This document shows, one piece after another, positions 3,577-34,414 of a stretch of DNA of 64,000 nucleotides (within the stretch, counting starts at the first letter, position 1; the number at the start of each line of letters is the position of its first letter). Below the pieces are notes generated by a model, which worked only from the letters and a program-made list of their open reading frames with translations, did not search any database and was not told where the DNA came from. A program made the translations under genes and the position numbers. This DNA is from Acidimicrobiia bacterium (GTDB taxonomy: Bacteria; Actinomycetota; Acidimicrobiia; Acidimicrobiales; Poriferisodalaceae): assembly GCA_022824805.1 (NCBI GenBank), contig JAJDZE010000066.1:1-64000 (forward strand), given 5' to 3'.

Positions 3577-5244
3577 TCAGAAGCCCAAGGATTGCAGGTT
3601 GGCTTCGATCTGAACGTCCAGTTTTTCTGCCTCGGCCTGCTGGGCGCGCCACTGGGCGGCGAGACGGGTCATCTTGTCGGCGAACGGCTCGCCGTCATCG
3701 GACTCGGGCGCCACGCCGACGTAGCGGCCTGGAGTGAGCACGCAGTCGTAGCCGCGGATTTCCTCGACCCGGGCGCTCTTGCAGAAACCTGCGACGTCCT
3801 CGTAGCCCGCCGACCTGTTGGCGCCGCCCTTGTCGGCCTGATCGTCGGCGCTCGATTCGCCTTGGCGGCTGCTCGCGTCGGCCTGTTCGCCGCCGCCTGC
3901 GTCGGCTGAACGCCAAGCGTGGTAAGTACTGGCCACCTTGGCAATGTCGTCGTCGGTGAACTCGCGGTGGGTGCGGTCGACCATGCGGCCCAAGCTGCGG
4001 GCATCAATGAACAGCACTTCGCTGCGCCGGTCACGCATGCCCTCGCCACCCGAGCGGTCTTTGGCCAGGAACCACAGGCAGGCCGGGATGGCTGTGGAGA
4101 AGAACAACTGGCTGGGCAGCGCCACCATGCAGTCGACCAGGTCGGCCTCGACGAGGTTCTGGCGGATCGCGCCCTCGCCCGACTGCCGCGACGACATCGA
4201 CCCGTTGGCGAGCACGAAGCCGGCCACCCCTTTCGGCGCAAGGTGGTGGACCATGTGCTGCACCCAAGCGAAGTTGGCGTTGCCCTTCGGCGGCACGCCG
4301 TAGACCCAGCGCTTGTCGTCGGCCAAGCGCTCGCCGCCCCAGTCCGACACATTGAACGGCGGGTTGGCCAGGATGAAGTCGGCTCGTAGGTCAGGGTGGC
4401 GATCGTCGTGGAACGTGTCGCCGTGAGTGATCTGGCCCTCGATGCCGCGGATTGCCAAGTTCATGCGCGCCAAGCGCCATGTGGTGTAGTTCGACTCCTG
4501 ACCGTAGACGGAGATAGCCGTCCGCGTGCCGGGCGGGCGTGGACCGCCGTTGCCGTTCCCGGAGGCGTGAGCTTCGATGAACTCCACCGACTGCACGAAC
4601 ATGCCCGACGAGCCGCAGCAAGGGTCGTACACCCGGCCCTCGAACGGCTCGATCATTTCCACCAGCAGGCGCACCACGCAACGAGGCGTGTAGAACTCGC
4701 CGCCCCGCTTGCCTTCCGCATCGGCGAACATCGACAGGAAGTACTCATAGACACGCCCGAGCACGTCACGCGAGCGAGCGGCGGCATCGCCCACCGTGAC
4801 GTTGCCCAGCAGGTCGATCAACTGGCCGAGCCGCTCCTGATCGAGCGCCGGCCGGGCGTAGTCCTTGGGCAGCACGCCGTCGAGTGCAGGGTTCATGGCC
4901 TCGAGTTCGTCCATGGCCCGGTCGATGATCGACCCGATGTGCGGCTGGCGGGCCTGTGCGGCAAGCACATCCCAACGCGCCGGCGCGGGCACCCAGAAGA
5001 CGTTGCGCCAGCGGTACTCGTCCACGTCGTCGGGATCGGCACCCTCGTCGATCTCGGCTTCGAGTTGCTCGCGGAGCTCGCCGAACGCGTCCGACACGTA
5101 TTTCAGGAAGATCAGCCCGAGGACGACATGCTTGTACTCGGCGGCGTCCATGCTGCCGCGCAGCTTGTCGGCGGCGGCCCACAGCGTCCGCTGGATGTCT
5201 GCGAGATCACCGCCCGCTACATCGCTCTCGCGAGTTCCGCTCAT
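3577..5244 (-). CDS. hsdM: Type I restriction-modification methyltransferase subunit HsdM
   Basis: [70 protein letters not shown] catalytic motif. Confidence 0.96.
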
Positions 5245-5329
5245 GGGCATTGTTGGTCTCCGCAACGCGCCGGGCCCCGCAATACGGGACACTCCTGCCT
5301 GCTTCTGTTTCTACTTCACACCGGCTCCC

Positions 5330-25498: not shown

Positions 25499-26269
25499 TC
25501 AGGCCAATCGGCGCCCCAAGTCGAACCACAGCTCGTCGAAGGCCTGCACCGCTTCGGGCGCACCAGGCCGGCGGCCGAGCGCCCGCAGCGGCTGCGACTG
25601 CCCGGAGGCTTCGGCGATGGCGGCCCGCTGCGGGACGGGCGGCAACAACTCTGTGTCGAAGCGCTCAGCGAGCTGCTGGGCCCAATACGCGTTGTCACGC
25701 GTCCGTCCAACACGATTCAGCACGACACCGGCGATCGTGGGCGTGCCTTGGCGCTGCGCTACTCGACCGATCGTGGATCGCATGAGGTCGACGCCGTCGG
25801 CTGCCCAAGCCGCCGGTTCGGTCACCACCAGCGCACGGTCGGCTGCGAACAGCCCGTTGATGCACAGCAGGCCCAACGACGGCGGGCAGTCGATGAGAAC
25901 GAGATCGTGGCTCACGCCGGCGAGCGCAATGCGCAGCCGGTCCTGTGCGCCCACTGGGTCTGCAGCCATCTGCGGTTCCCGGCTGGCCAGCGCATAGCTG
26001 CCCGGGACGAGTTGCGGGCAAGGCCCGTCAGGTGGCCAGCAAGCGTCGGTGACCGCGGAGAGCACAGCCCCCGGGGTCGGATCGGCGAGTGCGTCGTCGA
26101 CGCTCGGAGACCCGTTCCACACGCCTAGGCCAGCCGACGCGTTGGACTGCGGGTCGAGATCCACGACGAGCACGCTCAGCCCCGAAGCGCTCGCGGCCTC
26201 AGCGATGCCGAGCGCGACGGTGGTCTTGCCCACGCCGCCCTTTTGGTTGACCACAGCCAGCGTCGTCAT
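25499..26269 (-). CDS. ParA/Soj-family ATPase
   Basis: MTTLAVVNQKGGVGKTTVALGIAEAA; VLVVDLDPQSNASAGLG; VLIDCPPSLGLLCINGL. Confidence 0.93.
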   Translation of the reverse strand: MTTLAVVNQKGGVGKTTVALGIAEAASASGLSVLVVDLDPQSNASAGLGVWNGSPSVDDALADPTPGAVLSAVTDACWPPDGPCPQLVPGSYALASREPQMAADPVGAQDRLRIALAGVSHDLVLIDCPPSLGLLCINGLFAADRALVVTEPAAWAADGVDLMRSTIGRVAQRQGTPTIAGVVLNRVGRTRDNAYWAQQLAERFDTELLPPVPQRAAIAEASGQSQPLRALGRRPGAPEAVQAFDELWFDLGRRLA

Positions 26270-26305: not shown

Positions 26306-27508
26306 TCACGGCGCCGCTGTCGCGAGCGGTGTGGACAAGTCGATGCCGCACAGGGCCGCCGCGGCCGCCAGCTCGCCTCGCAGCCTCGCGCCCGCGGCCC
26401 CTCGCTCAGCCGCAGCAGCAGCGTCGAGCAGTGCAGCACGCGCCATCGGGGCATTGAGGTCGTCATCCAGCACAGCCTGCACCTCGGCGAGCAGGCCCGA
26501 TGACCCCTCGCCCGATCCGGCCGCAGGCGAGGCACCGGCAGCGGCTGCCACCAGCCTGTCCAAGTCTCGCTGGGCAGCAAGACCCTCCGAATCGAACCAC
26601 TCCCATTCCGTGCGGTAGTGGTGCGCCATGAGCGCCAGCCGGATGGCCCTGGGATCGATGCGTGCACGCAGATCCGAGATGAAGACCAGGTTGCCGAGCG
26701 ATTTCGACATCTTGTGCCCCTGGTACGAGACCAGGGCCGCATGCACCCAATATCGGGCCAGCGGAGCACCGTGCAGTGCCTCGCTCTGAGCGATCTCGCA
26801 CTCGTGGTGCGGGAACACCAGGTCACCGCCCCCGCCATGTATGTCGATGGTCTCGCCGAGCGCCGCGTAGCCCATCGCCGAGCACTCGATGTGCCAGCCA
26901 GGCCGCCCCGAGCCGAACGGCGACGGCCACGAGGGCTCGCCGTCTGCGCTGGCCTGCCACAGCACGAAGTCGAGCGGGTTGCGCTGGCGGGGGTCGTCAG
27001 GTGCGCCGCCGCGCTCGGTGGCCAGCTCGGTCATGCGACCGGCGCTGTAGCCCGACAGCTTCCCGAATTCAGGGAACGTGGTGACGTCGAAGAAGACCCG
27101 ATCGTGCGAGATGTAGGCATGCCCGGCATCGAGCAGCTTGGAGATCATGGTGATCATGGCGTCAATGGACCGGGTGGCCCGCGGCTCGTGCGCCGCGGGC
27201 CGTGTTCGAAGTGCCGCCATGTCGGCTTCGAAGCGTTCGATCTCCCGCTCGGCCAACGACAGGTAGTGCTCGCCCAGCTCGGCTGCCTTGGGCAGGATGC
27301 TGTCGTCGACGTCGGTGTAGTTGCGTACCAGCGTGACGGTGTGGCCTCTGTCTTCGAGGCGACGTATCAGCAGGTCGTAGGCCAGATACGTGGCGGCGTG
27401 CCCCAGGTGGGTGGCGTCATAGGGCGTGATGCCGCAGACATACATGCCGACGTGATCGCCGAGTTCCAACTCGACGACGGTCTTCTGCGCGGTGTCGAAG
27501 ATGCGCAT
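26306..27508 (-). CDS. mshC: Cysteine--1-D-myo-inosityl 2-amino-2-deoxy-alpha-D-glucopyranoside ligase-like (mycothiol) / CysS-like
   Basis: MYVCGITPYDATHLGHAATYLAYDLLIRRLEDRGHTVTLVRNYTDVDDSIL; KMSKSLGN; about 400 aa, shorter than typical CysRS. Confidence 0.8.
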   Translation of the reverse strand: MRIFDTAQKTVVELELGDHVGMYVCGITPYDATHLGHAATYLAYDLLIRRLEDRGHTVTLVRNYTDVDDSILPKAAELGEHYLSLAEREIERFEADMAALRTRPAAHEPRATRSIDAMITMISKLLDAGHAYISHDRVFFDVTTFPEFGKLSGYSAGRMTELATERGGAPDDPRQRNPLDFVLWQASADGEPSWPSPFGSGRPGWHIECSAMGYAALGETIDIHGGGGDLVFPHHECEIAQSEALHGAPLARYWVHAALVSYQGHKMSKSLGNLVFISDLRARIDPRAIRLALMAHHYRTEWEWFDSEGLAAQRDLDRLVAAAAGASPAAGSGEGSSGLLAEVQAVLDDDLNAPMARAALLDAAAAAERGAAGARLRGELAAAAALCGIDLSTPLATAAP

Positions 27509-27540
27509 TCCCACGGCCCGACACGGTACTGTCGGAGCGG

Positions 27541-28719
27541 GTGGACAAGCGTGGTAGCGATCGTGCGCTGCTCGAGCGGATTGCCCTGTACCGGCATCGA
27601 CGTGAGCTGCCGCCACTGCAACCCGCAGTCATCGATGAGCTTGCCGAATGGCTGAGAATCCACGGCGCCGACCCGCTCACCTACGTGTGCGATCTCTTCG
27701 AGCGACACCAAGTGGTCTTCGTGGGCCACCACACCCCCACGCGCCGCGCCGGGCTGTTCCTGCAGGATCTCGTGGCAGCGGCGTACCGGTCCGGCGTGGG
27801 CATCGTGGCGATGGAGTACGCCTGCGTCGATGACCAGGCCCGGCTCGACGCGGTGGTCACCGGCGCGACCTTCGACGAGCAGCTCGCGCGAGACGCACTG
27901 CTCCGCTGGGGCATACGCCACAACTTCGCCTACCGCGAATACCTCAACGTGCTGAGTGCGGTCTGGGAGGTGAACCGGCGCTTCGTCGGCAGCGGGCCGC
28001 CCATGCGCGTCCTGGCGCTCGACTACGACCTCGACCTCGATGCCGTCACCGACACGGCCGACCTGCGCACCTCGTACGCGTGGCCGCACCTGCGCAGCCG
28101 CGGCCCGGTGTCAGCGCACATGTGCGACGTGCTGCTCGCCGAGGTCGTCGAGCCGGGTCATCGCGCGCTCGTGCTCGCCCGCACCGCTCACGCGCTCACC
28201 CGCGCCAGGCGGCTGCCGCACCGGGTGTGGGATGCGATAGATGCCGAGATCGTGGGCGGTCAAGTGGTGGGCGCAGCGAACCGTGTGTACGAGGTGGTGG
28301 CCGACCGTGCCGTCACCGTGCTGATCCACGAACCGCTGCCGGCCGACGGCGAGCTGTGCGACTACGCCCTGGTCGCCGACGGCGTGCTCGACGCGGCGTT
28401 TGCCATGCACGACGACCTGGCCGTGCCGCTCGCCTTCGACGTCGATCAAGGGCCCGCAGCCCGACTCGGCTGTACCACCAGCCTCGATCGCGGGCCGCTC
28501 GGCGGCCTCGCCACCGGCTGGATCTACCTCGAACCCGACTACGAGCGTCGTGCGCCGACCCCGCTGCCCGAGCCGGTGCCTGCGGTGTACGTGGAGCACG
28601 CTCGGCGGTATGCCCTCGATCCGGCGCTGCGAGACGAGACATCGACCCCTGGCGACTTCGCTGCGGCAGTGTCCGAATCAGCAGCGGCAGCAGAGCTGGC
28701 CTGGACACAGGTGCTCTAG
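27541..28719 (+). CDS. ChaN/EreA-like (TIKI superfamily-like) protein, copy 1
   Basis: VVFVGHHTPTRRAGLFLQDLVAAAYRSGVGIVAMEYACVDDQARLDAVVTGATFDEQLAR...FAYREYLNVLSAVWEVNR resembles the ChaN pattern and is paralogous to the next gene. Confidence 0.5.
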   Translation: MDKRGSDRALLERIALYRHRRELPPLQPAVIDELAEWLRIHGADPLTYVCDLFERHQVVFVGHHTPTRRAGLFLQDLVAAAYRSGVGIVAMEYACVDDQARLDAVVTGATFDEQLARDALLRWGIRHNFAYREYLNVLSAVWEVNRRFVGSGPPMRVLALDYDLDLDAVTDTADLRTSYAWPHLRSRGPVSAHMCDVLLAEVVEPGHRALVLARTAHALTRARRLPHRVWDAIDAEIVGGQVVGAANRVYEVVADRAVTVLIHEPLPADGELCDYALVADGVLDAAFAMHDDLAVPLAFDVDQGPAARLGCTTSLDRGPLGGLATGWIYLEPDYERRAPTPLPEPVPAVYVEHARRYALDPALRDETSTPGDFAAAVSESAAAAELAWTQVL

Positions 28720-28779
28720 CTGGGCGCTGGGTCGGCTCGCTGTCAGTTTCGGGGCCGCCAGCGGGCAGACTCTTGGGCG

Positions 28780-29931
28780 GTGCCGCCCGAAGAACCCACC
28801 GACCACGAGCGGCCCACGCCCGCGCTCCTGTCGCCTGAGGAATACCTGGGCGACCTCTGCGGGCGCCACCAGATCGTTCTGCTCGGCGACCAGGTCGGGG
28901 TCCGCCAGCACTTGGGCTTCCTGGCGGGCACGCTCGCCGAGCTGGCCGAGGGCGGCGTGGAGAATCTCGCCTGGGAATTCACCAACTCACGCCGTCAAGC
29001 CGAGTTGGATGCCCTGATCGACGCGCCGGAGTGGGACAGCCGGGCCTGCGCCGACCTCTTCGTCGATCTGCTCGGTGCCGGATTCGGCTACCGGGAATAC
29101 GCCGACGTGCTGCACACGGTCTGGAAGCACAACCAAGCCGAGCTCCGCCGGGACGACGACCGGCGGCCCATCCGCGTGATCGCACTCGGCCTGCCCACCT
29201 ACGTGGAAGACCCCGACCTGCTCGACGGTCGCTCCGCCGCCGAGCTGGGGCTGCGGAACTGGTCGCTCGGCGGGCACTACCGGGACATGTCCGCGTTTCA
29301 CGCTGCCAGCGTGCTCACGACCGAAGTGCTCCGAGGGGGCCAGCGGGCGCTCGTGTACATGAACGTCGCCGCAACCACGACCGGTCTCATCGAGTGGGTT
29401 GACGGCTCGCCGACAGCCTCTGCGGGCAACCTCCTGTGGCGGTGGATGAGCGACGGATGCCGACGCGTCGTGTTCCACGGCGCCGTGGCCGACACCGCCG
29501 CCACCGAACGGGTCGAGGAGCTGATCTCACGCTCGCCCGAAGGGCGGGGCGGCACCGACATCCGCTTCGGCTTGGACCTGGCAGCCTCGACGCTCGGCAG
29601 CGTTGCGATGACGGGGGTGCGCGGCTCGCTCGACGGTGCCGATACCTCGCTGCGACTGCGCGAAGTTGCCGACGGCTACCTCTATCTGGGGCCGCGGGCC
29701 GACTGGGAACCGTGCGCGCTGATCGACGACCTGGTCACCGACGACAACTTCGCGAGTGCCGAGGCCCGTTACCGCGCACTCGATCCCCGACCGGCGCCCT
29801 ACACCCGCGCCGAGCTCGACGAGGTGCGCCGCACCGGGCAGCAGGAGCTGTCGGCAGCCTGGCCGCCGCTGCCGGAACCGCCCGAGGCGCCCAAGCGACG
29901 TTTCGCGCGCTTCCGCAAGAACGACGAGTAG
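28780..29931 (+). CDS. ChaN/EreA-like (TIKI superfamily-like) protein, copy 2
   Basis: IVLLGDQVGVRQHLGFLAGTLAELAEGGVENLAWEFTNSRRQAELDALIDAPEWDSRACADLF...FGYREYADVLHTVWKHNQ aligns by eye to the preceding gene. Confidence 0.5.
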   Translation: MPPEEPTDHERPTPALLSPEEYLGDLCGRHQIVLLGDQVGVRQHLGFLAGTLAELAEGGVENLAWEFTNSRRQAELDALIDAPEWDSRACADLFVDLLGAGFGYREYADVLHTVWKHNQAELRRDDDRRPIRVIALGLPTYVEDPDLLDGRSAAELGLRNWSLGGHYRDMSAFHAASVLTTEVLRGGQRALVYMNVAATTTGLIEWVDGSPTASAGNLLWRWMSDGCRRVVFHGAVADTAATERVEELISRSPEGRGGTDIRFGLDLAASTLGSVAMTGVRGSLDGADTSLRLREVADGYLYLGPRADWEPCALIDDLVTDDNFASAEARYRALDPRPAPYTRAELDEVRRTGQQELSAAWPPLPEPPEAPKRRFARFRKNDE

Positions 29932-29939
29932 CGAATACC

Positions 29940-30461
29940 GTGCTGCACCGCATCGACGAGATCCCGCTTCGGGCCGCTGAGGCAGTCGGTCGCCTGTTCG
30001 TGACCAACTTCTCGGCCGTCGGTCCCGATCCGGGGGGCGCGCTGGATCGCGTGGGCGCGTCGGTGGTGGCGTGCATGCTGACGCGCCACGAGATCGAGCT
30101 GCGCTATCCCGACTACGGCGAGTGGCTCACTGCCCATAGCGACGAGGCCGGCAGCCCCCGCGCACTGTGGCTGCCCACGCCTGACGGGGGCGTGACCACG
30201 GACGGGCCAGTGCTCGAACTCGTGGAGGCTGTCGTTGCAGCGCTGGATCGCGGCGACAGCGCCCTCGTGCACTGCGGCGCTGGCATGGCGCGCACGGCGG
30301 TGATCGGCATCCTGACGATGGTGGCCTTCGGCGCCGACCCTGCCGCGGCCGCTGTCGACTTCCGGGCTGCCCGTCCCGGCGGCGGTCCCGACGGTCCTCC
30401 CCAGGAACGCCAGATCGCCCGCCTCGTCCCCAAGGCCAGACGACTGCGCGCCATCGACTGA
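29940..30461 (+). CDS. Protein tyrosine/dual-specificity phosphatase-like
   Basis: ALVHCGAGMARTAVIGILTMVAFGADP contains HCxxGxxR(T); GTG start just after the previous stop. Confidence 0.75.
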   Translation: MLHRIDEIPLRAAEAVGRLFVTNFSAVGPDPGGALDRVGASVVACMLTRHEIELRYPDYGEWLTAHSDEAGSPRALWLPTPDGGVTTDGPVLELVEAVVAALDRGDSALVHCGAGMARTAVIGILTMVAFGADPAAAAVDFRAARPGGGPDGPPQERQIARLVPKARRLRAID

Positions 30462-30467
30462 TGCGGC

Positions 30468-31283
30468 CTAGCCCGCGTCGGTGTTGGTGCCGTCGTGTTC
30501 TTCCCAGCGCCAGCCGGAGCGGACCATGACGCAGCGGCGGCGCGGGCCGGGGGCATCGAGGTCGCCGTCAGGAAAAGCTGCATCGCCGACGTAGACGGCA
30601 ACGTGACCCGGGTCGGTCTCCGGCGACGTGATGATCTGGGTGTGGAAGCATGTGTGGCCGTTGATCGAGGCGAGCGCCTCGGCAGCGCGGGTGAAGCCTG
30701 ACAGCCAGGTGAGCGTCACGAACGTGGGTGTGACGAACTCGATTTCGCCTGCTGCTCGCCGTTCCAACGCCGCCGCGGGCGACACCCAGGCATGGTCGAG
30801 GATCTCGCTCCCGTCGACACGCACCGCATCCAGATCGGCTGGCGCCTCACAGATGAAGAAATGTGTCGAGAACCGCTTGGGCCGAATCGGCGGCGGCAGC
30901 CAGTGGGCGAAGTGGGTCAGCTCGGCGCCAGAGAGGTCGATGCCGGCCTCTTCGTGCGCCTCCCGAACTGCCGCTGTGCGAAAGCCGCGTCGGTCGCCGT
31001 CATGCAGCCCATCTGCGCCGGCAGTGCGGGGGTCGCACGCGGCCACCGCATCTCCGGGCGTGTCACGATCGGGCGGGTCCACCCGACCGCCGGGGAATAC
31101 CCACATGCCACCGAAGAAGCCACGTGAGTTTCGCCGGAGCATGAGCACCTCGATATGGGTCCCGGCGTCGCTTTCCGCCGCGTCGAATCCGTGACCTGGC
31201 GCGGCAGCGGGCGTGCCGTCGCGCAGCACCACGACGGTCGCCGCGTCGATCGGCGCTGGCGGCTGTGCGGGGGAATCGTTCAT
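30468..31283 (-). CDS. NUDIX hydrolase
   Basis: GGMWVFPGGRVDP...RTAAVREAHEEAGIDLSG Nudix box. Confidence 0.92.
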   Translation of the reverse strand: MNDSPAQPPAPIDAATVVVLRDGTPAAAPGHGFDAAESDAGTHIEVLMLRRNSRGFFGGMWVFPGGRVDPPDRDTPGDAVAACDPRTAGADGLHDGDRRGFRTAAVREAHEEAGIDLSGAELTHFAHWLPPPIRPKRFSTHFFICEAPADLDAVRVDGSEILDHAWVSPAAALERRAAGEIEFVTPTFVTLTWLSGFTRAAEALASINGHTCFHTQIITSPETDPGHVAVYVGDAAFPDGDLDAPGPRRRCVMVRSGWRWEEHDGTNTDAG

Positions 31284-31292
31284 AGGCCCGGT

Positions 31293-31943
31293 CTACGCGG
31301 TGTCCCGGGTTCGCAACTCCAAGCGATCGGAGCCGGCGTCCATGCCGGGCAGCGGGCGCGGCACGTAGCCGCTGTGCTTCGCCAGCAGTTCCACCACCAT
31401 CTCCTCGGCCTCGGCCCAGTCGTGGGCCCGTGGTCCTTCCACTTGGAGGTTGTAGGGCTGGTCGAACGTGATCGCATACCCGCCAGCGGCGCGAATATCG
31501 ATCACGTTGTGCGGAGCGTCTTCGATGTAGGCGTCAGCGTTCACCATCGCCTTGTCGGCCACGAAGCAGATGTCGCGATAGGGGATGCGCTCACGGTCGA
31601 GCCACTCGACCGTGTCGCTCACGGTGACACGGTGGCCCCAGCTCACATACAGGCGGTGGGTGACGATCCGAATCCACACGCCGGCATCAGACAGCCGCCA
31701 CAGCGCTTCGGAGCACCCCTCCATCGGCTTCATCTCACGGAACATGCGGTAGTCGACGACGGCAATGCGGTGCAGCTCTTCGAACTCGCCGTCGGCGAGA
31801 CCCCACTCGGTGAAGTTCCAGCCACGCACCAGCGGCAGCGAGTCCTCCGGAACGCCGCGCTCGGCTGCCACCACGCGACGGAAGGCCTCGGTGTGCATCC
31901 CGCACACACCGTCGAGGTCCACTGCAAGCACGAACGCTGGCAC
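31293..31943 (-). CDS. 5'-nucleotidase / 5'(3')-deoxyribonucleotidase-like HAD protein
   Basis: FVLAVDLDGVCGMHTEAFRRVVA; IRIVTHRLYVSWGHRVTVSDTVEWLDRERIPYRDICFVADKAMVNADAYIEDAPHNV. Confidence 0.8.
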   Translation of the reverse strand: MPAFVLAVDLDGVCGMHTEAFRRVVAAERGVPEDSLPLVRGWNFTEWGLADGEFEELHRIAVVDYRMFREMKPMEGCSEALWRLSDAGVWIRIVTHRLYVSWGHRVTVSDTVEWLDRERIPYRDICFVADKAMVNADAYIEDAPHNVIDIRAAGGYAITFDQPYNLQVEGPRAHDWAEAEEMVVELLAKHSGYVPRPLPGMDAGSDRLELRTRDTA

Positions 31944-32021: not shown

Positions 32022-32777
32022 ATGCCGCCTGATGCCGACGAGCCGATGCCTGCGACGCGCGGCGTCCACGACCTCGGCGGCGCGAGCGGCTGGGGCCGTG
32101 TTCCCTACGAACCGGACGAACCGCCGTTCCACGCCGACTGGGAACGGCGAGTCTTCGGCCTGCTGGGCGCAGTCACGTCGGCGACGGCCCGGCGGCCCGG
32201 CGAGTTCCGCTATGCGCTGGAGCGCCTTCACCCCGACGACTACTTCGACAACGGCTACTACGGCCGCTGGCTGGCAGGTTTCGAAGTGCTGCTTGACGAG
32301 TACGGGGTCTTCGATCTCTCCGACTTGGCTCTCCGAGTGAGCGCACGCACCGAACAGGCCCTCGGCGACATCACACGGGCATCACCGGCGCTGCGGGTTG
32401 CCCCAGTAGCCGACCGCGTCTCTTCGATGCTGCCCCCCGATCGCCCGGTGCCGGCGCCCCAACGCCGGACGGTGCGGCGGGATCTCGCTGAGCCGCCCCG
32501 GTTCAGCACCGGCGACCGCGTGGTTGCCCCGACGCCGACGCAACCTGGCCATACACGGCTGCCGGGCTACGTGATGGACAAGCCGGGCACGGTCGCCAAG
32601 CTGCATCCGGCCGAGGTGCTGCCCGACAGCACCGCGCACAACAGGGGCGAACGGCCCCAGCACGTGTACTGCGTGGGCTACGACGCCCGAACGCTGTGGG
32701 GCGACGACGCCGAGCCCAATGCGACGGTCTACGCCGACCTGTACGAGTGCTACCTGACTGCGGCCCAGAGCGACTGA
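32022..32777 (+). CDS. nthB: Nitrile hydratase subunit beta
   Basis: GVHDLGGASGWGRV; FSTGDRVVAPTPTQPGHTRLPGYVMDKPGTVAKLHPAEVLPDSTAHNRGERPQHVYCVGYDARTLWGDDAEPNATVYADLYECYL. Confidence 0.93.
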   Translation: MPPDADEPMPATRGVHDLGGASGWGRVPYEPDEPPFHADWERRVFGLLGAVTSATARRPGEFRYALERLHPDDYFDNGYYGRWLAGFEVLLDEYGVFDLSDLALRVSARTEQALGDITRASPALRVAPVADRVSSMLPPDRPVPAPQRRTVRRDLAEPPRFSTGDRVVAPTPTQPGHTRLPGYVMDKPGTVAKLHPAEVLPDSTAHNRGERPQHVYCVGYDARTLWGDDAEPNATVYADLYECYLTAAQSD

Positions 32778-32810
32778 CGCGATGGCAACAGGCTGACCAC
32801 GGAGGAACGG

Positions 32811-33452
32811 ATGCACGACGACCACGGGCATGGGCATCACCACGGCGAGCACGACCACGGCCGTCACGCTGCGTCGTCGCCGGGAGTCCGCGTGGAGGCC
32901 CTGGAGGACCTGTTGGTGGAGCGGGGTCTGGCCGATCGCGAGCGGATTGACGCGACCATCCAGCGGTTCGAAGACGACATCGGCCCGATGATCGGAGCGC
33001 GGCTCGTGGCCGAGGCGTGGGCCGATGCTGGCCTGCGACGGAGGCTGCTGAGCGAGGCAGACGCCGTAGTCGCCGAGATGGACATCCGGGGTGCGGAGAT
33101 TGAGCACATCGAGGTGAAGGCCAATGAGCCTGGCGTCCACAACGTGGTCGTCTGCACCCTGTGCTCGTGCTACCCGTGGGCGCTGCTGGGCCTGCCGCCG
33201 AACTGGTACAAGAGCCCCGAGTACCGGGCCCGCGTGGTGCGCGAGCCCCGGGCCGTGCTGGCCGAGATGGGCTTGCACCTCGAAGCTGACACCGAGCTGC
33301 GTGTGTGGGATTCGAGTTCCGAGACGCGTTTCTTGGTGCTGCCCGAACGGCCCGTCGGCACCGAGGGATGGTCGGTTGAGCGCTTGGTCGAGTTGGTGAC
33401 GCGTGATTCGATGATCGGCGTCGCACATGCGGCCGATCCCGGCGGCCAGTGA
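32811..33452 (+). CDS. nthA: Nitrile hydratase subunit alpha, cobalt-type, His-rich N-terminus
   Basis: VVVCTLCSCYPWALLGLPPNWYKSPEYRARVVREPR metal-claw motif; N-terminus MHDDHGHGHHHGEHDHGRHAASS. Confidence 0.96.
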   Translation: MHDDHGHGHHHGEHDHGRHAASSPGVRVEALEDLLVERGLADRERIDATIQRFEDDIGPMIGARLVAEAWADAGLRRRLLSEADAVVAEMDIRGAEIEHIEVKANEPGVHNVVVCTLCSCYPWALLGLPPNWYKSPEYRARVVREPRAVLAEMGLHLEADTELRVWDSSSETRFLVLPERPVGTEGWSVERLVELVTRDSMIGVAHAADPGGQ

Positions 33453-33462
33453 GGCCCCGCCG

Positions 33463-33804
33463 GTGAGCATCGACCTGCTGGAGGGCACTCCGGCCGCCCC
33501 ACCACGTGACAACGGCGAGTTGGTTTTCTCTGAGCCATGGCAGGCGCGTGCGTTCGGCTTGGCGGCCGACCTCGTCGACGGCGGTCACTTCACCTGGGAC
33601 GAGTTCCGCGACCACCTCATCGAGGCCATAGCTGGATGGGAGCAGGCCTCGGGCTGTGGTGAAGCGGCTGAGCCGTGGGATTACTACCGGTGCTGGCTGA
33701 CGGCGCTCGAGCACGCCGTTGGCGAGCGCGGCCTGCTGAGCGGCGATGCCGTTGCCGATCGGGCCGCCGCATACGCCTCCCGTCCCGCTGGCCACGATCA
33801 CTGA
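33463..33804 (+). CDS. Nitrile hydratase accessory/activator protein
   Basis: GELVFSEPWQARAFGLAADLVDGGHFTWDEFRDHLIEAIAGWEQA...YYRCWLTALEHAVGERGLL; beta-subunit N-domain-like; adjacent to nthA. Confidence 0.88.
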   Translation: MSIDLLEGTPAAPPRDNGELVFSEPWQARAFGLAADLVDGGHFTWDEFRDHLIEAIAGWEQASGCGEAAEPWDYYRCWLTALEHAVGERGLLSGDAVADRAAAYASRPAGHDH

Positions 33805-33874: not shown

Positions 33875-34414
33875 ATGAGCACCCTCACCTTCCACGATCC
33901 GCGAGGCGAGGCCAAGACTGCGCCTGAGCCATACGCGCTCAGCACACCGCTCGATCAGCCGATCACGATCGGCTTGGTCGCCAATGGCTTCCCCGACAGC
34001 GTCCGCTTCCTTGACCACGTCGAGAAGGCGTTGGCCGAACGGCTGCCGTCGGCGTCGTTCAACCGCTACGACAAGGGCGACGCGTCGTCGGTTGTCGGCA
34101 AAGGGATGCTCAGCGACATCAGCTCCGAATGCGGCGCGGTGATCGCTGCGTACGGCCATTGAGGCAGCTGCACATCTGGCACCGTGCGTGACAGCATCAC
34201 TACCGCCCGAGCAGGCATCCCGTCCATCGCGCTCGTCACCGATGCGTTCTGGCCCCAGGGCGACTTCGTGGCCAACGCCACCGGCATGCCGACGGTCCCC
34301 CGCGTCCGGCTTCCCCACCCCGTGGCGGGCAGCGGCGAGGACAACCTGGCCAAGGTGGCCGCCGATATCGCGCCGCAGATCATCGCGATCCTGACCGGCG
34401 CTGCCGCCAACTAG
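33875..34414 (+). CDS. UGSC-family selenoprotein (in-frame TGA at 34160-34162 read as Sec)
   Basis: Two same-frame ORFs join across TGA: ...ISSECGAVIAAYGH-U-GSCTSGTVRDSITTARAGIPSIALVTDAFWPQGDF...; the residues after TGA spell the family motif UGSC. Confidence 0.85.
34160..34194 (+). promoter_or_regulatory. Candidate bacterial SECIS hairpin
   Basis: TGA then 13 nt, then CTGGCAC-CGTGC-GTGACAG (CTG/CAG, G-A mismatch, CAC/GTG; G in second loop position). Confidence 0.45.

What the first reader, a model, noticed from the sequence alone, without database searches (positions are those of the whole stretch)
27541..30461. Tandem pair of diverged ChaN/EreA-like proteins plus a PTP-like phosphatase
Two adjacent 380-390-aa proteins share the same layout (VVFVGHH.../IVLLGDQ..., AMEYA.../AWEFT..., YREYLNVLSAVWEVN/YREYADVLHTVWKHN). 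They are followed 9 nt later by an HCGAGMART phosphatase. The putative active-site region differs between copies (GHHTPT versus GDQVGV), so one may be regulatory. The function of this cassette is unknown to me; an esterase/heme-handling or resistance module with phosphatase control is speculation.
Basis: partly seen in the sequence, partly recalled or inferred. Interest (0 to 1): 0.62.

Follow-up and report, generated by a model that had tools for sequence, protein, structure and literature searches.

The report
Degenerate esterase-fold gene pair, one lineage
Two neighbouring genes in an uncultured actinobacterium encode distant, duplicated cousins of erythromycin esterases and the haem protein ChaN that have lost the esterase's catalytic histidine; they are conserved almost throughout one bacterial family and found nowhere else searched, so they probably do a lineage-specific housekeeping job that nobody has described.

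Summary
Window 27541-28719 (P1, 392 aa) and 28780-29931 (P2, 383 aa) are diverged tandem paralogues (28% identity, E=3e-16), followed 8 nt after P2's stop by a DSP/PTP-type phosphatase (29940-30461). Superfamily: P1 hits Pfam ChaN/Tiki PF04187 below its cut-off, 11 of 24 P2 relatives hit it weakly, and both profiles score highest against erythromycin esterases out of 17 families, above 60 shuffles. So both are very distant EreA/ChaN/TIKI-fold proteins. Neither has the full 2Glu/2His site: the catalytic-base histidine is gone in all 68 sequences. The pair is old (each copy one clade, 100/100), under purifying selection, present in 34-35 of 37 genomes of one Acidimicrobiia family and in none of about 700 other genomes sampled in the phylum. 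The phosphatase is not a conserved partner: it sits there in all 11 genomes of this genus only. In five sister genera the pair instead heads a P1-P2-nucleotidase(NT5C)-NUDIX operon, divergent from a mshC-like gene. My best reading is a cytoplasmic heteromeric pair binding or converting a small phosphorylated metabolite, not a macrolide esterase or haem lipoprotein. The function is inferred only. New variant of a known kind, moderate interest.

The parts
27541..28719 (+). P1, 392 aa, EreA/ChaN/TIKI-fold relative; motif GHHT (GE in deep relatives), E92, H217, H263
28780..29931 (+). P2, 383 aa, diverged paralogue of P1; motif LGDQxGxxQH, WEF (E66), GGHYRD, H233
29940..30461 (+). DSP/PTP-type phosphatase (HCGAGMART, PDGG), 173 aa; adjacent to P2 only in this genus
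31293..31943 (-). NT5C-type HAD nucleotidase (PF06941, E=1e-35); directly after P2 in the operon of sister genera
30468..31283 (-). NUDIX hydrolase; fourth gene of the operon in sister genera
26306..27514 (-). MshC/CysS-type ligase gene, divergent from P1, 26 bp between start codons; scores higher to mycothiol MshC (417 bits) than to CysS (353), but under the MshC cut-off (485)

Best explanation
P1 and P2 are an ancient, vertically inherited pair of cytoplasmic proteins of the EreA/ChaN/TIKI superfamily. The pair lost the superfamily's catalytic-base histidine and kept the acidic pocket residue on the second strand. I infer that the two work together (as a heteromer, or as two steps on one substrate) and bind or convert a small phosphorylated or nucleotide-type metabolite whose further handling involves the neighbouring NT5C-type nucleotidase and NUDIX hydrolase. 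The phosphatase next to P2 is a genus-specific arrangement, probably a later addition. Shown: homology of the two copies, residue losses, lineage restriction, gene order in sister genera, purifying selection. Well supported: the superfamily relationship. Inferred: joint action, ligand class, metabolic role.
For: P1/P2 homology. PF04187 match of P1, 22.7 bits, and weak matches of 11/24 P2 relatives. Both profiles score best against erythromycin esterases among 17 families (28.6, 39.6 and 42.0 for P1, P2 and joint profiles; the best control scored 23.8) and above the best of 60 column shuffles (22.3, 30.0, 26.4). The P2 profile aligns its strand1-helix-strand2 to the same element of HopBA1. Each copy is one clade, 100/100. 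Gene order P1-P2-NT5C-NUDIX, mostly with 1-4 nt overlaps between the last three genes, in genera g2, g4, g6, g7 (a 51-nt gap in g5). No hydrophobic segment or signal-like N terminus. Low dN/dS.
Against: P2 in the deepest genera is coupled to a PEP-utiliser-domain protein and lies far from P1, so tight pairing is not universal. No direct evidence for any ligand or for P1-P2 contact. AlphaFold models were poor (mean pLDDT 48.5 and 37.9) and the one fold search was uninformative. NT5C occurs in other families of the order without P1/P2.
Confidence: 0.35

Rival explanations
1. One or both proteins are still hydrolases (esterase or peptidase) with a rebuilt active site, using residues invariant in this branch, such as P2 D37, H44, E66, H166, D169, H233 or P1 H183, H263.
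For: Many polar residues are invariant in each copy; deep P1s keep the GE motif and half of the P1s keep a histidine at the second His site.
Against: The catalytic-base histidine position is P (32/34) in P1 and G (32/34) in P2; for the Ere enzymes, mutation of that His costs about 1000-fold activity (PMC7979712).
Confidence: 0.25
2. Haem-binding or haem-handling pair, like a heterodimeric version of ChaN, whose dimerisation is linked to cofacial haem binding (title of the Chan 2006 paper in the reference list read).
For: The named Pfam family is ChaN; a tandem pair could form an asymmetric dimer.
Against: No lipoprotein or export signal and no TM segment; no haem-uptake gene was recognised next to the pair in the genera examined; PF04187 scores stay below cut-off.
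Confidence: 0.12
3. Antibiotic or toxin-resistance (or stress) module under phosphatase control.
For: The fold is shared with macrolide esterases; a phosphatase with intact HCxxGxxR is adjacent.
Against: Phosphatase linkage is confined to one genus; the genes are at a fixed chromosomal place with no plasmid or phage relatives; they behave as family core genes under purifying selection; catalytic His missing.
Confidence: 0.08
4. The two proteins have a different, unknown fold and the superfamily match is spurious.
For: All single matches are below curated cut-offs, and hhalign probabilities are only 5-53%.
Against: Independent matches converge: PF04187 and HopBA1 Pfam models, HopBA1 in the PDB, and erythromycin esterase profile-profile, with the joint and P1 profiles aligned at the same strand1/strand2 motif; real scores exceed shuffled, reversed and 16 control families.
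Confidence: 0.12

Closest known systems
Erythromycin esterase family (PF05139; EreA/EreB/EreC)
   Same: Best profile-profile match of P1, P2 and joint profiles; joint and P1 profiles align at the GE..H strand 1 and E strand 2, the P2 profile at the C-terminal half.
   Different: Catalytic-base His absent in all 68 sequences; first Glu is His/Gln in most P1s and Asp in P2; second His lost in P2 and Asn in half of P1s. No PF05139 hit in the window's genome.
ChaN / Cofac_haem_bdg (PF04187)
   Same: P1 22.7 bits over residues 54-174; 11/24 P2 relatives match weakly.
   Different: Below the 27.7-bit cut-off; the match covers only about half the model; no lipoprotein signal.
HopBA1-type TIKI proteins (PF22079, PDB 5T09)
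   Same: P2 shares the GD-type strand 1 and the E of strand 2 in the alignment.
   Different: E=0.1 in the PDB and 0.026 in Pfam: a lead only; similarity limited to about 50 residues.
PTP-SAK / DSP phosphatases (PF22784)
   Same: The neighbouring phosphatase has HCGAGMART and a PDGG loop.
   Different: Window copy 24.2 bits, cut-off 27; it is not a conserved partner of P1/P2.

Membership tests
EreA/ChaN/TIKI superfamily (fold) | Detectable profile similarity over the core strands, above controls | tested here: met
   best of 17 families and above 60 shuffles for P1, P2 and joint profiles
EreA/ChaN/TIKI superfamily (fold) | Central beta-sheet core with the TIKI topology in a structure | tested here: inconclusive
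   low-confidence models, no usable Foldseek match; the order of secondary elements is compatible
Active TIKI/Ere enzymes | 2Glu/2His catalytic set (EreC E47, H50, E78, H289; PMC7979712, PMC6254334) | tested here: not met
   E47 = H/E/Q (P1), D (P2); H50 = P (P1), G (P2); E78 = E/D (P1), E (P2); H289 = H or N (P1), mostly R or A (P2). Equivalence of the last site rests on my reading of the alignment
PF05139 erythromycin esterase | Score over the family's cut-off | tested here: not met
   no match in P1, P2 or the window's genome
PF04187 ChaN | Score over the family's cut-off (27.7 bits) | tested here: not met
   22.7-23.9 bits
PF04187 ChaN | Haem binding | not testable with these tools
   needs protein
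PF04187 ChaN | Lipoprotein or export signal (as in characterised ChaN; own knowledge) | tested here: not met
   no hydrophobic N-terminal segment in P1 or P2
Conserved P1-P2-phosphatase cassette | Phosphatase next to the pair across genera | tested here: not met
   genus g1 only

The most novel reading that the evidence does not exclude
A lineage-specific heterodimer built from two differently decayed TIKI/esterase-fold proteins has acquired a new chemistry or ligand (for example a nucleotide- or thiol-linked metabolite processed with the NT5C and NUDIX enzymes), becoming a core function of one Acidimicrobiia family.
Probability: 0.25. Interest if true: 0.6.

Novelty: new variant of a known kind. 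Interest (0 to 1): 0.36.

Why it matters
The EreA/ChaN/TIKI fold is known for unusually varied uses (drug esterases, a haem protein, Wnt and Ras proteases, effectors). A chromosomal pair of catalytically altered members, kept almost throughout one family of uncultured actinobacteria and not found elsewhere, is a clean case for asking what the fold does once the esterase site is gone. It also corrects an easy mis-annotation as erythromycin esterase, haem-binding protein or phosphatase-controlled resistance cassette.

Tried and rejected
Phosphatase as conserved partner: rejected, adjacent in one genus only. Mobile or phage origin: no relative in 72,556 plasmids (P1, P2), 50,697 phages (P2) or viral contigs. 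Wider distribution: profiles found no credible relative outside the family in samples of 297, 397 and 397 genomes, only fragments of 15.5-17.8 bits; other phyla could not be searched by whole genome, and the genome-contig scan uses patterns that reach close relatives only. Structure: AlphaFold on 14 sequences, mostly near-identical orthologues, gave pLDDT 48.5 and 37.9, and Foldseek found nothing usable. Single-sequence PDB searches gave nothing. Literature searches found no paper on this gene pair. Absence of P1/P2 in G023 and G033: those genomes also lack the NT5C gene, and their only MshC/CysS-type hit is about 40% identical, so loss of the whole locus and an assembly gap cannot be told apart.

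Full report
What is there. The window carries three genes on the + strand: P1 (27541-28719), P2 (28780-29931) and a small phosphatase (29940-30461), with the phosphatase start 8 nt after the P2 stop. P1 and P2 are homologous, 28% identical over 308 residues, E=3e-16. All three look like genes by codon usage. P1 evolves about as slowly as the mshC-like neighbour, P2 somewhat faster; both are under purifying selection.

What family. On its own P1 matches Pfam PF04187 (ChaN, Tiki superfamily) at 22.7 bits, under the 27.7 cut-off; P2 of the window matches nothing. Neither matches NCBIfam. Among relatives, 4 of 23 P1s (E<=0.05) and 11 of 24 P2s (E<=0.5) match PF04187 weakly, and 9 P2s match HopBA1, another member of the same superfamily. 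The P2 profile finds HopBA1 in the PDB at E=0.1, aligned over strand 1, helix 1 and strand 2. I then compared profiles with erythromycin esterases collected from the phylum. Against 16 control families from the same neighbourhood, the esterases came first for P1, P2 and the joint profile, and the scores exceeded 60 column-shuffled versions and one reversed version of each profile. Each piece is weak; together they make the superfamily assignment likely. The structure models were too poor to add anything.

The active site. In EreC the working residues are E47, H50, E78 and H289 (PMC7979712); TIKI enzymes share this 2His/2Glu set, and PMT is a member that lacks it (PMC6254334). In 34 P1s and 34 P2s the H50 position is Pro in P1 (32/34) and Gly in P2 (32/34). 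The E47 position is His (25), Glu (6) or Gln (3) in P1 and Asp in all P2s. The E78 position is Glu or Asp in P1 and always Glu in P2. The H289 position, read from the alignment by eye, is His or Asn (17 each) in P1 and mostly Arg or Ala in P2. P1s of deep genera keep an LGE motif, and some also keep the second His, which suggests an ancestor closer to the normal site.

Distribution and age. P1 is found in 35 and P2 in 34 of 37 genomes of the window's family; the named records among them are Acidimicrobiia MAGs. There is no credible relative in samples of the rest of the order and phylum, in plasmids or phages, or in viral contigs. Each copy forms one clade with 100/100 support, each holding sequences from nearly all genera, so the duplication predates the family's radiation. 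Other phyla were not searchable by whole genome.

Neighbourhood. In genera g2, g4, g5, g6 and g7 the order is mshC-like gene (divergent), P1, P2, NT5C nucleotidase, NUDIX. P1 and P2 are usually about 18 nt apart, and the last three genes mostly overlap by 1-4 nt, as in a translationally coupled operon; g5 has 51 nt between P2 and NT5C. In the window's genus the phosphatase follows P2 and the NT5C-NUDIX block lies inverted beyond it. In the deep genera g3, g8, g9 and g10 P1 sits by YihY and the mshC-like gene, and P2 by NT5C and, where the contig reaches, a PEP-utiliser-domain protein, kilobases from P1 or on another contig. The mshC-like gene scores 417 bits to MshC and 353 to CysS; it passes the CysS cut-off and misses the MshC one, so its identity is likely but not settled.

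The phosphatase. It has HCGAGMART and a PDGG loop, both conserved in its close relatives. It adjoins P2 in all 11 genomes of the genus and in no other genus; relatives in other families stand in unrelated contexts. It may be co-transcribed with P2 here, but it does not look like part of the ancestral unit.

Mechanism. I favour a cytoplasmic, catalytically altered pair that binds or converts a small phosphorylated metabolite together with NT5C and NUDIX (confidence 0.35). The recurring presence of phosphoryl-handling enzymes beside P2 (PEP-utiliser domain, NT5C and NUDIX, phosphatase) is the main positional clue, and it is weak. A rebuilt hydrolase is the main rival (0.25). Resistance and haem handling are possible but have little support.

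Verdict. The finding is real. The superfamily guess is right at a distance, the phosphatase cassette is not general, and the function is open. It is a new, lineage-restricted variant of a known fold family.

Noticed in passing
window 33875-34414 (+): UGSC-family selenoprotein: an in-frame TGA at 34160-34162 reads as GH-U-GSCTSG; NCBIfam NF041046 E=1.1e-31 (109.8 bits, cut-off 125) when TGA is read as Sec. Ordinary ORF tools split it in two. Folding of the 50 nt around the TGA showed no unusually stable hairpin.
   Followed up: partly
window 32022-33804 (+): Nitrile hydratase beta, alpha and accessory genes, conserved in the neighbourhood across genera but in opposite orientation relative to P1/P2 in the window's genus.
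   Followed up: partly
window 30468-31943 (-): The NUDIX-NT5C block is inverted in this genus relative to sister genera, at the place where the phosphatase gene appears.
   Followed up: partly
window 25499-26269 (-): ParA-like ATPase, conserved next to the mshC-like gene in several genera; no ParB gene was recognised beside it.
   Followed up: no
L108:7403-9151, L110:2162-4027, L116:470-2254: A 580-620 aa protein with a PEP-utiliser mobile domain at its C terminus lies directly upstream of P2 in deep genera, overlapping or close to it; most of the protein matches no Pfam family.
   Followed up: partly
window 3577-5250 (-): Type I restriction-modification HsdM-like gene, 174.8 bits, cut-off 242.75.
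   Followed up: no
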